Shown: positions 50,140 to 53,477 of the stretch, one piece after another
Numbering within the stretch: the stretch's first letter is position 1
Layout: each line of letters opens with the position of its first letter
The notes under the pieces: generated by a model
What the model was told of the DNA's origin: nothing
Seen by the model: only the letters and a program-made list of their open reading frames with translations
Database searches by the model: none
Translations under genes and position numbers: made by a program
Assembly (NCBI RefSeq): GCF_003353065.1
Contig: NZ_CP027806.1
Location: forward strand, 3,926,501 to 3,990,500
Source: Cyclonatronum proteinivorum
GTDB lineage: Bacteria; Bacteroidota; Rhodothermia; Balneolales; Cyclonatronaceae
Length of the DNA stretch: 64,000 nucleotides
Direction: 5' to 3'

Positions 50140-51078
50140 ATGGAAACTATCCGGATTGCTCTGGACTGGACCCCCAACACCATTCATGCGGGCTTTTTCC
50201 TGGCCTGGCACAAAGGCTGGTACCGGGAAGCTGGTCTCGAGATTGCGTTTATTTCTCCCGAAACCGACAACTATCAGCTCACCCCGGCACGGCGGCTTTC
50301 GCAGCGCAAGGTTGATTTTGCGATTGCCCCCTCTGAGAGCGTGATTTCATACAACACTTCCCGCCGGCCTGCCGCTATCACCGCCGTAGCAAGCATCCTT
50401 CAGCGGGATACAAGCGCGATTGTGTGCCTGAGCAACAGCGGCATCACCCGACCGGCCATGCTTGACGGCAAAACCTATGCCTCCTACAATGCCCGCTATG
50501 AAGATGAAATTGTTCGTGCGATGATTCTGAATGATGGCGGAACGGGCGCTTTTAACCCGGTTGCCATCAGCCGGCTGGGCATTTGGGATATGCTCAAAAA
50601 AGGGGAAGCTGACGCGACCTGGGTTTTTATGCCCTGGGAAGGTGTCGAAGCACAGCACAACGGAATTGCGCTCAACGCTTTCCGCATGGAAGATTTCGGC
50701 ATCCCCTACGGATACACGCCGCTGTTGCTTGCACACCTTTCAGCGATTCCGCTGCGCGAAGCTGCCTACCGCAGCTTTCTCCGCATTACGGCACGCGCCT
50801 ATACAGAAGCTGCAGCTGCACCCGAGGAAACAGCCGCCTTCCTGAGTGAGCGGGTTGGACATCCTGACTTTGCCCGGAAAGACTTCATCCGTGATTCCAT
50901 GCGTGAACTTGCACCGGCAATCCTGAACGAGCAGGGACGCTGGGGCGAAATGCAGCCAAAGGTATGGGGCCGCTTCATCGACTGGCTGGTCGAACGCAAG
51001 CTCGCTGTCCCCCGTCAACCGATTGAAAGCTGGCATTTGTTCACGAACAAGCTTCTCGGAGAGCACTCCGGAAACTGA
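50140..51078 (+). CDS. THI5/NMT1-like binding-protein fold, no signal peptide
   Basis: A 312-residue type II periplasmic-binding-protein fold of the NMT1/THI5-like group (DWTPNTIHAGFFLAWHKGWYREAGLEI is typical). Members either capture pyrimidine precursors for ABC import or, in yeast Thi5, synthesise HMP-phosphate. No signal peptide precedes METIRIALDW, so it should stay in the cytoplasm. The Thi5 PLP lysine and suicidal histidine (KAMIH) are replaced by APSES here, and the CCCFC motif is absent, arguing against HMP-P synthase. No ABC permease or ATPase gene adjoins. Role undecided. Confidence 0.8.
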   Translation: METIRIALDWTPNTIHAGFFLAWHKGWYREAGLEIAFISPETDNYQLTPARRLSQRKVDFAIAPSESVISYNTSRRPAAITAVASILQRDTSAIVCLSNSGITRPAMLDGKTYASYNARYEDEIVRAMILNDGGTGAFNPVAISRLGIWDMLKKGEADATWVFMPWEGVEAQHNGIALNAFRMEDFGIPYGYTPLLLAHLSAIPLREAAYRSFLRITARAYTEAAAAPEETAAFLSERVGHPDFARKDFIRDSMRELAPAILNEQGRWGEMQPKVWGRFIDWLVERKLAVPRQPIESWHLFTNKLLGEHSGN

Positions 51079-51171
51079 CACCAAAGTTATCCGACTTCAG
51101 ATAGTTGCGTAGCGGCACCTCTTTTTTTGATATGGGAAGTCGGTGAATTTTTACTATATTCACTTTATAAA

Positions 51172-51280
51172 GAACATCGCTTTCCTCTTTTGGAAACGAT
51201 GTATCTACAGCAGCCCCGCTTAGTCCGGGGCTGCACTAAGGCTCAGGCCAACTGCCCTGAGCCTTAGTGCAGCTTTTTCT
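51172..51280 (+). ncRNA. Candidate structured small RNA with terminator
   Basis: Three consecutive hairpins: ACATCG/CGATGT with TTTCC/GGAAA inside (51174-51202), CAGCCCC/GGGGCTG (51211-51233), and a perfect 17-base stem beginning CTGCACTAAGG (51231-51247 with 51256-51272), followed by CTTTTTCTT. The second and third stems share CTG (51231-51233), so they partly compete. An A+T-rich TACTATATTCAC lies just upstream. Could also be only a long 3' UTR and terminator of the THI5-like gene, which ends 95 bases before. No known RNA family recognised. Confidence 0.5.
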
Positions 51281-51573
51281 TATCAGATCAGCACCTGTCT
51301 ATCACCCGGACTACAAGCCCTGAAAAGGCGACCCATTATCAAAGCGGGACATTTAGATTAGGCTTTACTTAACACCCTAAATATTCGGGCTTACAATGCT
51401 AACAACATTTGTGTTATTCAAAAAAGCTATAGCTGTCGCCCAATCTTTTATGATACGCTTTCCGGGGGGGTATAAAAATTAAACAGATAGCTCATTACTC
51501 CTTTCCTCCCGAAATAAAAGACCCCACTGAGCTTAACTTAATCAGCTACAAACATTTTTGAGTTTTCTTTAAA
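51281..51573. other. A+T-rich gap before the Abi gene
   Basis: About 290 bases with lower G+C than the flanks and no credible gene. It marks the left edge of an A+T-rich island that includes the Abi gene. Confidence 0.4.
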
Positions 51574-51603
51574 CAAAAAAAGGGAGTCCAAAATTGAACT
51601 CCC
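51574..51603 (-). terminator. Terminator-like hairpin facing the minus strand
   Basis: GGGAGT (51582-51587) and ACTCCC (51598-51603) pair; the A run at 51575-51581 gives a T run on the minus strand. There is no minus-strand gene immediately upstream of it, so its function is unclear. Confidence 0.5.
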
Positions 51604-51626
51604 TTCTAATCATTTACCTGATTACG

Positions 51627-51641
51627 TTCCAATAATTGGAA
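51627..51641. promoter_or_regulatory. Perfect palindrome upstream of the Abi gene
   Basis: TTCCAAT-A-ATTGGAA, 54 bases before the Abi start codon. A plausible operator; nothing shows which regulator would use it. Confidence 0.3.
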
Positions 51642-51695
51642 GAGGCTTTACCAAGTCTGTATGTCTAATATTAGCAAAAGTTTTGATATTAAGCA

Positions 51696-52382
51696 ATGTT
51701 TATACAGAATAAGCTGATTGAGAATTATATCTCCGCACCGCGTTTTGAAAGATACCTCAAGGCTGCAGATTATAACAAAACGAGAGCTGCAAAACTTTAC
51801 ATAGCGAATATTGAACTCGCTCAGGCTGCGCATCCATTAATTACCCAATTTGAAGTTGTGCTTAGAAACAGCCTAAACATGCAGCTCAGTAATTATTTTG
51901 ATAACCCAGATTGGATTATTCATGAGAAAGACGGGTTTATGAAAAATCCAAGCCTTAGGGAATCAGACTTTTTCCTCAGGCGCACAATAGAAAAAACTGA
52001 ATTATTACTGAGACGAAAGAGAATATCTATAACATGTGGAAAAATAGTTTCAGAACAATCGTTAGGATTTTGGGTTGCTTTGTTTTTATCGCACCATTAC
52101 CGATTAATTGACGGTCAACCTATCAAAATTTTTGATTACAAGCCGGTTTCAGAAAACAGATCACGCCTTTACTCAAAATTGTCTGCCATTAAAACACTCC
52201 GAAACCGGGTTAACCATTGTGACCCCCTTTGCTTCAAGAAAAACAAAATAGATTGTTCGCTCATATTGAGCATCAGACTTGATATGCTCCGGTTAATCGA
52301 ATGGATCGAGCCTGATTTACTACCTTTTTTTGAAAGTATCGACAAATTGACCAAAAAAGTGGACTACCTAATGAGTATTTAG
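51696..52382 (+). CDS. Abi_2/AbiD-F-type protein with HEPN ribonuclease motif
   Basis: A 228-residue member of the abortive-infection Abi_2 (AbiD/AbiF) group. The N-terminal part (YISAPRFERYL, AHPLITQFEVVLRNSLNMQL) and the C-terminal LRNRVNHCDP are characteristic; R169-NRVN-H174 is the R-x4-6-H motif of HEPN ribonucleases, so it probably cleaves RNA to stop growth on phage infection. The gene is clearly A+T-rich with AAA/AAT-type codons unlike its neighbours, indicating recent transfer. No antitoxin lies beside it on the same strand. Confidence 0.85.
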   Translation: MFIQNKLIENYISAPRFERYLKAADYNKTRAAKLYIANIELAQAAHPLITQFEVVLRNSLNMQLSNYFDNPDWIIHEKDGFMKNPSLRESDFFLRRTIEKTELLLRRKRISITCGKIVSEQSLGFWVALFLSHHYRLIDGQPIKIFDYKPVSENRSRLYSKLSAIKTLRNRVNHCDPLCFKKNKIDCSLILSIRLDMLRLIEWIEPDLLPFFESIDKLTKKVDYLMSI

Positions 52383-52400
52383 CGGCATCCATCGCACCAA

Positions 52401-53477
52401 CTACCCTCCCGCTTCTTCCTCCAGTTTTTGCTGCAGGCGGGCTTCATTTTCCTCCAGCTCCCGCGGATTCCAGCGGCGCTCTTTTACGCGATCCATCACA
52501 ATCCCCATGCTTTCGGAAAGCATTTCGGCTACCTGAATGTTGAGCATGCGCACCTGATCCGATCCGTTTTCGGTGTCTTCATCCAGCAGCAGTTCTGACA
52601 AATCTTCCACAAGAGCCTTGTTTCGGGATGAACCAAGATCCCGGATAATGCCGTGCACAACGCTGAACACAATATCGCGGATTGCCCCTTCAATTTGCGA
52701 AGCCGCAACGCGACCCACAAACGGAATGGCCTCCAGGTTTTGGATTTCGCGGTTTTTCTCGACCGCTTCATCTATGCGCTCATTCACATAGGCGCGTATA
52801 TCGTCTTCATGCAACGCATAGCCTTTGGAAGCGGCAAGCTGCAGCCGCATGGAAATCCAGTTGACCAGCACGACCTGTCGCGGACGCAGCACATCATCCA
52901 CAATACGATCGATAACCGGCGTACCCTCCCGCAGCTCACTCCTGACATTGGACAAAATGTTGAGCACAACCCGGTCGGTCAGCTCCTGCACTAAGAAGTT
53001 CAAATACCGCATCCCGAAGCGGAACAGCGCAAATTTGCGCATGTCGATATAGCCGATTCGCTGCAGGCGTACCATAATGGTGACTATGCGGAGCAACCGC
53101 AGGAAGCGGAAACCGCCAATCGGAATACAGCCTATGAGATCGTACCAGTACACGAAGGGGTAGTAGTACCATTTTGAAAACTCCCGCTCCCTGATTGAGT
53201 AAATCCACCTTACAAAGAATTCAGTAAGGAAAATGCTGATGAAGATGAGATCGTACAGAATGAAATCGACGTGTATGTTCGTCGCATAGAACTCAAAAAA
53301 GGCTGGAGAAAGCCACTCAATCCAGCCCTGAAACCGCCGACTTTGAAACAGCCAGTCGAAGCTGATCATCGCAAGGTTTACGAGCAGCAGAAAAAGCATG
53401 ATGAAGTCCCCGGCCAGATATCCGACCTTTCGGGGTGTTTCCTTGCTTTTTCCGGTGTTGTTCTTCCCCATCCCCAT
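52401..53477 (-). CDS. Voltage-sensor-like membrane protein without a pore
   Basis: A 358-residue inner-membrane protein with an ion-channel-type voltage sensor: S1 about 18-44, S2 73-95, S3 106-122 and a textbook S4 (FRFLRLLRIVTIMVRLQRI) with Arg124, 127, 130, 137 and 140. After S4 there are no S5/S6 helices and no selectivity filter; instead about 215 cytoplasmic, helical, charged residues follow, including a Glu-rich coiled coil at the C-terminus. The architecture recalls proton-channel (Hv1) or voltage-sensor-effector proteins rather than a potassium channel. It starts three bases after the stop of the winged-helix gene, so the two form an operon. Confidence 0.75.
   Translation of the reverse strand: MGMGKNNTGKSKETPRKVGYLAGDFIMLFLLLVNLAMISFDWLFQSRRFQGWIEWLSPAFFEFYATNIHVDFILYDLIFISIFLTEFFVRWIYSIREREFSKWYYYPFVYWYDLIGCIPIGGFRFLRLLRIVTIMVRLQRIGYIDMRKFALFRFGMRYLNFLVQELTDRVVLNILSNVRSELREGTPVIDRIVDDVLRPRQVVLVNWISMRLQLAASKGYALHEDDIRAYVNERIDEAVEKNREIQNLEAIPFVGRVAASQIEGAIRDIVFSVVHGIIRDLGSSRNKALVEDLSELLLDEDTENGSDQVRMLNIQVAEMLSESMGIVMDRVKERRWNPRELEENEARLQQKLEEEAGG

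What the first reader, a model, noticed from the sequence alone, without database searches (positions are those of the whole stretch)
51172..51280. Candidate small RNA with three hairpins and competing stems
Between the THI5-like gene and the Abi gene lie three ordered hairpins ending in a 17-base perfect stem and T run. The middle and last stems share three bases, so the RNA could switch between two forms. The stems are far larger than needed for a terminator.
Basis: seen in the sequence. Interest (0 to 1): 0.5.

Follow-up and report, generated by a model that had tools for sequence, protein, structure and literature searches.

The report
Orphan RNA from a jumping gene
The three hairpins are a left-behind copy of a small RNA that related bacteria carry at one end of IS110 jumping genes, on the strand opposite the enzyme gene; here the jumping gene is gone and the hairpins probably just stop transcription of the gene in front of them.

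Summary
The hairpins are real and far beyond chance. Hairpins 1 and 2 with their linker match an RNA found antisense at the 3' end of IS110 transposase genes in other Balneolales. A related RNA lies at the right end of IS110 elements from many Bacteroidota: hairpin 1 with a bulged A, an AUC linker, and a terminator hairpin, usually GUAG...CUAC. Compensatory changes support the structure (147 cells against 44.6 in shuffles). G-U pairs put the RNA on the antisense strand. In 15 of 29 elements the Bacteroidota promoter box TAnnTTTG lies just upstream. The Rfam searches run found no match. In the window no transposase remains, and three of five congeners lack the insertion. Hairpin 3 is not part of the conserved RNA, and the proposed switch is a five-base overlap. 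Best reading: an IS110 right-end relic that now probably terminates the NMT1/THI5-like transcript; in intact elements, an antisense or insulating RNA (function inferred). The nearby Abi gene has a different conserved RNA of its own.

The parts
51137..51233 (+). Stretch with DNA similarity to the IS110-type RNA locus of G008: upstream part, hairpin 1, linker, hairpin 2
   Evidence: blastn 73% identity, E 5.7e-7
51155..51162 (+). TATATTCA, a poor -7 box at the place where IS110 copies have TAnnTTTG-like boxes
   Evidence: by position only; no TAnnTTTG within one mismatch in the window row
51169..51172 (+). AAAG, conserved start of the RNA in the alignments
51171..51206 (+). Hairpin 1 (AGA/TCT, bulged A, ACATCG/CGATGT, bulged C, TTTCC/GGAAA)
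   Evidence: helix 1
51203..51208 (+). ATCTAC linker; its ATC is invariant in 29 of 29 rows
51210..51234 (+). Hairpin 2 (terminator hairpin in the IS110 copies)
   Evidence: helix 2
51230..51273 (+). Hairpin 3, 18 perfect pairs; not part of the conserved RNA
51274..51278 (+). T run that completes the intrinsic terminator
50140..51078 (+). NMT1/THI5-like gene whose transcript the hairpins would end
   Evidence: PF09084, 138.2 bits

Best explanation
51169-51278 (+) is a transposase-less copy of the right-end antisense RNA of Bacteroidota IS110 elements. Shown by sequence: in intact elements a stretch of about 65-84 nt at the right end, on the strand opposite the transposase and running toward it, is conserved as hairpin 1, an AUC linker and a terminator hairpin, and outside Balneolales it often has a Bacteroidota -7 box in front. 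Inferred: it is transcribed as a separate short RNA that ends at hairpin 2. Inferred, less certain: it holds down transposase expression, by lying antisense to the end of the transposase message and by stopping outside transcription from entering the element. In the window the IS body is lost; the remaining hairpins, with hairpin 3 and its T run, most likely act as terminator of the NMT1/THI5-like gene (inferred).
For: G008 similarity, E 5.7e-7. Pattern hits in 7 genomes read as this RNA. Position opposite IS110 transposases, Pfam IS110 domains in the two transposases scanned. Compensatory changes. G-U asymmetry and folding energy by strand. TAnnTTTG in 15 of 29 against a shuffle mean of 1.05. 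Inward terminators in 24 of 27 Bacteroidota loci. Profiles built without the window and G008 still find the window: nhmmer E 4e-5, R3 32.2 bits as the only hit in 64 kb and best in the genome. Lineage-specific insertion: in G001, G002 and G004 the convergent gene follows the NMT1 gene within about 30-240 nt.
Against: No transcript data. The window copy lacks a good promoter box and any transposase remnant. R3 also scores four loci that look like ordinary terminators at 26.6-35.1 bits, so R3 alone does not prove membership. Hairpin 3 is not explained by the family. No pairing of the RNA with the left end or the transposase start or body beyond chance. The rows of A3 were partly chosen for a visible hairpin 2.
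Confidence: 0.6

Rival explanations
1. An ordinary intrinsic terminator of the NMT1/THI5-like gene without any IS history.
For: Hairpin 3 with T run is a strong terminator, downstream of the NMT1 stop in the same direction; R3 also matches ordinary terminators.
Against: Hairpin 1, linker and hairpin 2 match IS110 RNAs in sequence, and the insertion is absent in three of five congeners.
Confidence: 0.12
2. The window copy is an active, kept small RNA acting in trans, for example on IS110 elements or host mRNAs.
For: All pairs of hairpins 1 and 2 are intact although no transposase is present; solo copies of an IS110 sRNA are known for ISPpu9 (PMC8450116, passages); the own genome holds ten IS110-family matches.
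Against: Poor promoter box; the seven own IS110 copies closest to the family carry a different right end.
Confidence: 0.12
3. In intact elements the stretch is only an insulating terminator, not a regulatory RNA.
For: Inward terminators in 24 of 27 Bacteroidota loci.
Against: Hairpin 1 and the linker are also conserved, and a promoter box sits in front in many.
Confidence: 0.25
4. The RNA is the guide (bridge or seek) RNA of these elements.
For: IS1111-type elements carry a 70-100 nt guide RNA region downstream of the transposase gene (PMC11187229, passages; PMC11208160, passages).
Against: In the own-genome and G104 elements the left end has about 300 nt of non-coding DNA that repeats ACAGTACC of the right end (6 of 7 own copies and one G104 copy), as expected of a left-end bridge RNA. 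The RNA runs opposite to the transposase. Guide pairing to targets was not tested.
Confidence: 0.05
5. It is the antitoxin RNA of the neighbouring Abi_2-like gene.
For: It lies near a HEPN-type gene (RNRVNH); AbiF systems use an RNA antitoxin (PMC12373285, passages).
Against: In G008 this RNA and the Abi relative are on different contigs. Another RNA on the minus strand is conserved directly upstream of the Abi gene. No RF03085 match.
Confidence: 0.03

Closest known systems
Asr9 and Ssr9 of ISPpu9, IS110 family, Pseudomonas putida (PMC8450116, abstract and passages)
   Same: Small RNAs encoded in an IS110-family element, one antisense and one downstream of the transposase; solo copies of ssr9 exist away from the transposase gene
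   Different: Asr9 is antisense to the 5' untranslated region and stimulates expression; Ssr9 is on the transposase strand; both about 180 nt. The present RNA is antisense, at the 3' end, and shorter
IS110 bridge RNA and seekRNA (PMC11208160 and PMC11187229, passages)
   Same: Structured RNA from a non-coding end of an IS110-family element
   Different: Those guide recombination and lie in the left end of IS110-type or the right end of IS1111-type elements; this RNA runs opposite to the transposase and has a constant linker
Antisense RNAs of IS10, IS30 and IS200 (named in PMC8450116; details recalled)
   Same: IS-encoded RNA antisense to the transposase message
   Different: Reported to block transposase translation; the present RNA covers the 3' end or the region after it
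Intrinsic terminator
   Same: GC-rich hairpin followed by a T run
   Different: Preceded here by a conserved hairpin and linker

Membership tests
IS110 right-end antisense RNA of Bacteroidota (defined here) | Hairpin 1 with bulged A, AUC linker, terminator-type hairpin 2 | tested here: met
   Window fits the structure and is found by profiles built without it
IS110 right-end antisense RNA of Bacteroidota (defined here) | Next to an IS110 transposase gene on the opposite strand | tested here: not met
   No transposase in the window flanks; hence called a relic, not an intact member
IS110 right-end antisense RNA of Bacteroidota (defined here) | Promoter box TAnnTTTG in front | tested here: not met
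   None within one mismatch in the window; also not exact in any of the 9 Balneolales rows
IS110 right-end antisense RNA of Bacteroidota (defined here) | T run directly after hairpin 2 | tested here: not met
   In the window hairpin 3 lies between hairpin 2 and the T run
Any Rfam family | Score at or above the family's gathering score | tested here: not met
   Window: only two tRNAs elsewhere; permissive scan of 51080-51700 gave only matches below gathering
AbiF RNA (RF03085) | Rfam model match | tested here: not met
   Not in the list at E up to 5
Intrinsic terminator | Stable stem followed directly by a T run | tested here: met
   Hairpin 3 plus TTTTT
Intrinsic terminator | Stops transcription in the cell | not testable with these tools
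   No transcript data
IS110 bridge RNA | Loops complementary to target and donor DNA | not tested
   Only the position and the left-end ACAGTACC repeat were looked at

The most novel reading that the evidence does not exclude
IS110 elements of Bacteroidota carry a second non-coding RNA besides the bridge RNA, made from its own promoter at the right end, that takes part in or restrains RNA-guided transposition; the window copy is a host-kept solo version that could act in trans against such elements.
Probability: 0.1. Interest if true: 0.75.

Novelty: new variant of a known kind. Interest (0 to 1): 0.48.

Why it matters
IS110 elements matter because a bridge RNA programs their recombination. 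A second structured RNA, conserved at the right end of Bacteroidota IS110 elements and without a match in the Rfam searches run, would be a simple and testable addition to how these elements are controlled. The window shows how a fragment of such an element can end up as a likely terminator of a host gene.

Tried and rejected
Two-state switch: rejected; hairpins 2 and 3 overlap by five bases only. Rfam leads in the permissive scan (mir-9201, glmS, L20 leader and others) are all below gathering scores. Phage records: no match. Pairing of the RNA with the left end on either strand, the transposase start or the transposase body: mean z -0.29, 0.26, -0.52 and -0.01 over 16 elements, nothing beyond chance. 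AbiF antitoxin reading: set aside. Viral contigs: 41 IS110 relatives, of which 11 were searched with R2 without a match; the Abi protein had no relative there. Weak hits of R1 in nine genomes of the class (33.7 bits and below): only G071 has an IS110 transposase next to it among those tested. Weak R2 hits in four genomes of the phylum (G253, G366, G443, G447) have no IS110 transposase within the flanks and read like ordinary terminators.

Selection and dropped rows. A3 holds 29 rows partly chosen for a visible hairpin 2, so its pairing level is partly selected. Five rows (L136, L138, L149, L155, L156) have a shorter hairpin 1 and are misaligned there in A3; they were left out of A4 to A6. A5 came out misaligned in hairpin 1 and was not used. 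A6 also leaves out the window, G008, L134, L135 and L142. Of 13 Bacteroidota loci searched with R3 but not used to build it, 10 were found at the right place; L138 and L143 were missed and L154 was hit elsewhere. One of the 10, L153, is nearly the same as L151, which was used. R2 found L132, L140, L143, L153 and L154, which are not in A3. One search used 35 of the 52 loci; one near-duplicate and loci with partial matches were left out.

Left open: the second partial copy of the AAAGAAGGCTT...GATGTC stretch at the transposase stop of Bacteroidales elements, and the origin of hairpin 3.

Full report
Observation. 51164-51284 folds at -57.9 kcal/mol, z -8.15 against 200 dinucleotide shuffles, none as good. 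Hairpin 1 is 51171-51206 (14 pairs), hairpin 2 51210-51234 (9 pairs), hairpin 3 51230-51273 (18 perfect pairs), then TTTTT. Hairpins 2 and 3 share five bases; this is fraying at a junction rather than a switch.

First relatives. In 59 genomes of relatives, the own genome included, one match outside the own genome stood clear: G008:C190, 73% over window 51137-51233, E 5.7e-7, covering the upstream stretch and hairpins 1 and 2 but not hairpin 3. In G008 hairpin 2 is followed directly by CTTTTT, and a short frame on the other strand ends ...GEAVVDTSAPEYETVFFVDAR, which by eye resembles the tails of the IS110 transposases below. The pattern AAAGAACN{12,40}TGTATCTAC hit 12 of 128 genomes of the order at 24 places; the pattern read backwards hit 9 times. 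By eye, 18 places in 7 genomes are this RNA and 6 are chance.

What it belongs to. In G060, G104 and G113 the motif lies opposite the 3' end of a transposase gene; tblastn shows the same for G069 (2 of its 10 places tested), G082 and G074. The G104 protein and the own-genome relative carry the IS110 domains PF01548 and PF02371. Hairpin 2, linker and hairpin 1 are there the complement of the transposase tail (...GEATVDTS...). Model R1, built from eight sequences with the window among them, had matches in 18 of 244 genomes of the class at E up to 0.01; 23 matches above 60 bits lie in 9 genomes. In 7 of the 9 an IS110 transposase lies next to the RNA on the other strand, in G039 only by a 23-residue match at a contig edge (E 0.26); in the window and G008 none was found. 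In G074 the transposase has an internal deletion.

Wider family. A scan with four of these transposases gave 52 loci. In many Bacteroidota loci the right end carries, antisense to the transposase, a sequence like GAAAGAAGGCTTC...GAAGTCTATCTTGTGTAG-stem-CTACTTTTT. In the Bacteroidales elements it lies between the transposase stop and the right end, so coding sequence does not explain it there. Terminator hairpins of -12 kcal/mol or better point into the element in 24 of 27 Bacteroidota loci (in L154 at another place) and 1 of 8 proteobacterial loci, against 1 of 35 on the transposase strand (35 of the 52 loci).

RNA evidence. On 29 sequences (A3), 93.1% of cells pair and 147 cells are changed on both sides (shuffles 44.6, sd 5.9, 0 of 500 as high); sliding the partner by one to three columns drops pairing to 38-46%. 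On 19 sequences without window and G008 (A6): 96.3%, 94 cells against 30.2, sliding 38-48%. Rows were partly chosen for a visible hairpin 2; hairpin 1 was not a criterion. The tool warns that related sequences can exceed such shuffles. Strand: in hairpin 2, 26 G-U cells against 1 A-C; in hairpin 1, 24 against 14 (five rows are misaligned there); 26 of 29 sequences fold better on the antisense strand, the window not. Promoter: TAnnTTTG, the Bacteroides -7 consensus (PMC7366714, passage), occurs exactly in 15 of 29 just upstream, shuffles mean 1.05, at most 5 in 300 trials; with one mismatch 25 against 12.8. None of the 15 is among the 9 Balneolales rows. Rfam: no match to the RNA (window; 51080-51700; five and fourteen loci).

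Tests without the window. A sequence-only profile of seven Balneolales IS110 RNAs, without window and G008, finds G008 at E 7.4e-7 and the window at 4e-5, scaled to both strands of the genome; of four likely terminators the best reaches E 9, and eight own-genome IS110 loci give nothing. Model R3, built without both, has its only hit in the 64 kb at 51163-51237 (32.2 bits) and its best hit in the genome there (E 0.0015; the next 22.1 bits, E 0.38); it finds the G008 locus at 43.2 bits. R3 also scores the four likely terminators at 26.6-35.1 bits, so it is no proof alone. It found 10 of 13 unused Bacteroidota IS110 loci and none of 7 proteobacterial ones at the transposase end. In 394 genomes of the phylum R2 matched 13; outside Balneolales, G390, G414 and G519 lie opposite an IS110 transposase, and G253, G366, G443 and G447 have none within the flanks.

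The window copy. The gene in front is NMT1/THI5-like. In G001, G002 and G004 the convergent gene that here lies at 52401-53477 (no Pfam match) follows it within about 30-240 nt; in G005 about 1 kb lies between, with different sequence; in G003 the convergent gene is not within the 3.9 kb locus. So 51079-52400 looks like a lineage-specific insertion. No transposase remnant was found. G008 and the intact elements lack hairpin 3. Of the seven own-genome IS110 copies with a related transposase (50-52% identity), six have a 16-pair palindrome-type stretch with GCTCAGGCC after their hairpin 2, a string also in hairpin 3 (the pairing was computed for two); suggestive only. The simplest present role is terminator of the NMT1/THI5-like gene; this is inferred.

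Mechanism in intact elements. The left end of the own-genome and G104 elements has about 300 nt of non-coding DNA before the transposase and repeats ACAGTACC of the right end (6 of 7 own copies, one G104 copy), as expected of a left-end bridge RNA, so the right-end RNA is probably a second RNA. I infer that it is transcribed inward, stops at hairpin 2 and lies antisense to the end of the transposase message. No pairing to other parts of the element beyond chance was found. The words antisense and terminator do not occur in the main text of PMC11208160; antisense does not occur in PMC11187229, where terminator occurs three times, in the places shown for plasmid constructs. ISPpu9 has two sRNAs in other positions and solo copies of one (PMC8450116). 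The two Bacteroides transcriptome papers searched for transposase terms showed nothing on this RNA (passages). Searches of the open-access library showed no paper on it in their listings; that is a limited check.

The Abi gene. The gene at 51696-52382 is weakly Abi_2-like (20.5 bits, cut-off 25.6), has RNRVNH and matches PADLOC PD-T4-5 at E 1.9e-9. Directly upstream on the minus strand is another RNA-like element, shared closely by 4 of 7 relatives' loci, with looser hairpins in the other 3. It is separate from the finding.

Noticed in passing
window 51574-51657 (minus strand), upstream of the Abi_2-like gene 51696-52382: A likely structured RNA (CUUGGUAAAGCCUC..., inner stem, then CAAG-type closing stem and terminator), divergent to the Abi gene and shared closely by loci of G011, G008 and G357; G305, G312 and G365 have looser hairpins at the same place. 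No RF03085 match. Possible antitoxin-like RNA.
   Followed up: partly
L133, L137, L139, L141, L142, L144-L148, L150, L151, L157 (Bacteroidales-type IS110 right ends): In several of these a second partial copy of the AAAGAAGGCTT...GATGTC stretch sits at the transposase stop codon, after the first copy and its terminator (by eye).
   Followed up: no
L068-L070 (G104): Three nearly identical IS110 copies lie in a shared palindromic flank (TTTAGCG...CGCTAAA), which looks like a repeated target.
   Followed up: no
L107 (G074:C56): IS110 copy with an internal transposase deletion (query residues 1-145 and 313-364 matched) that keeps the right-end RNA.
   Followed up: no
L029, L075 (G005), between the NMT1-like gene and the convergent gene: A different insertion of about 1 kb at the same interval as in the window, so the interval may be an insertion hotspot.
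   Followed up: no
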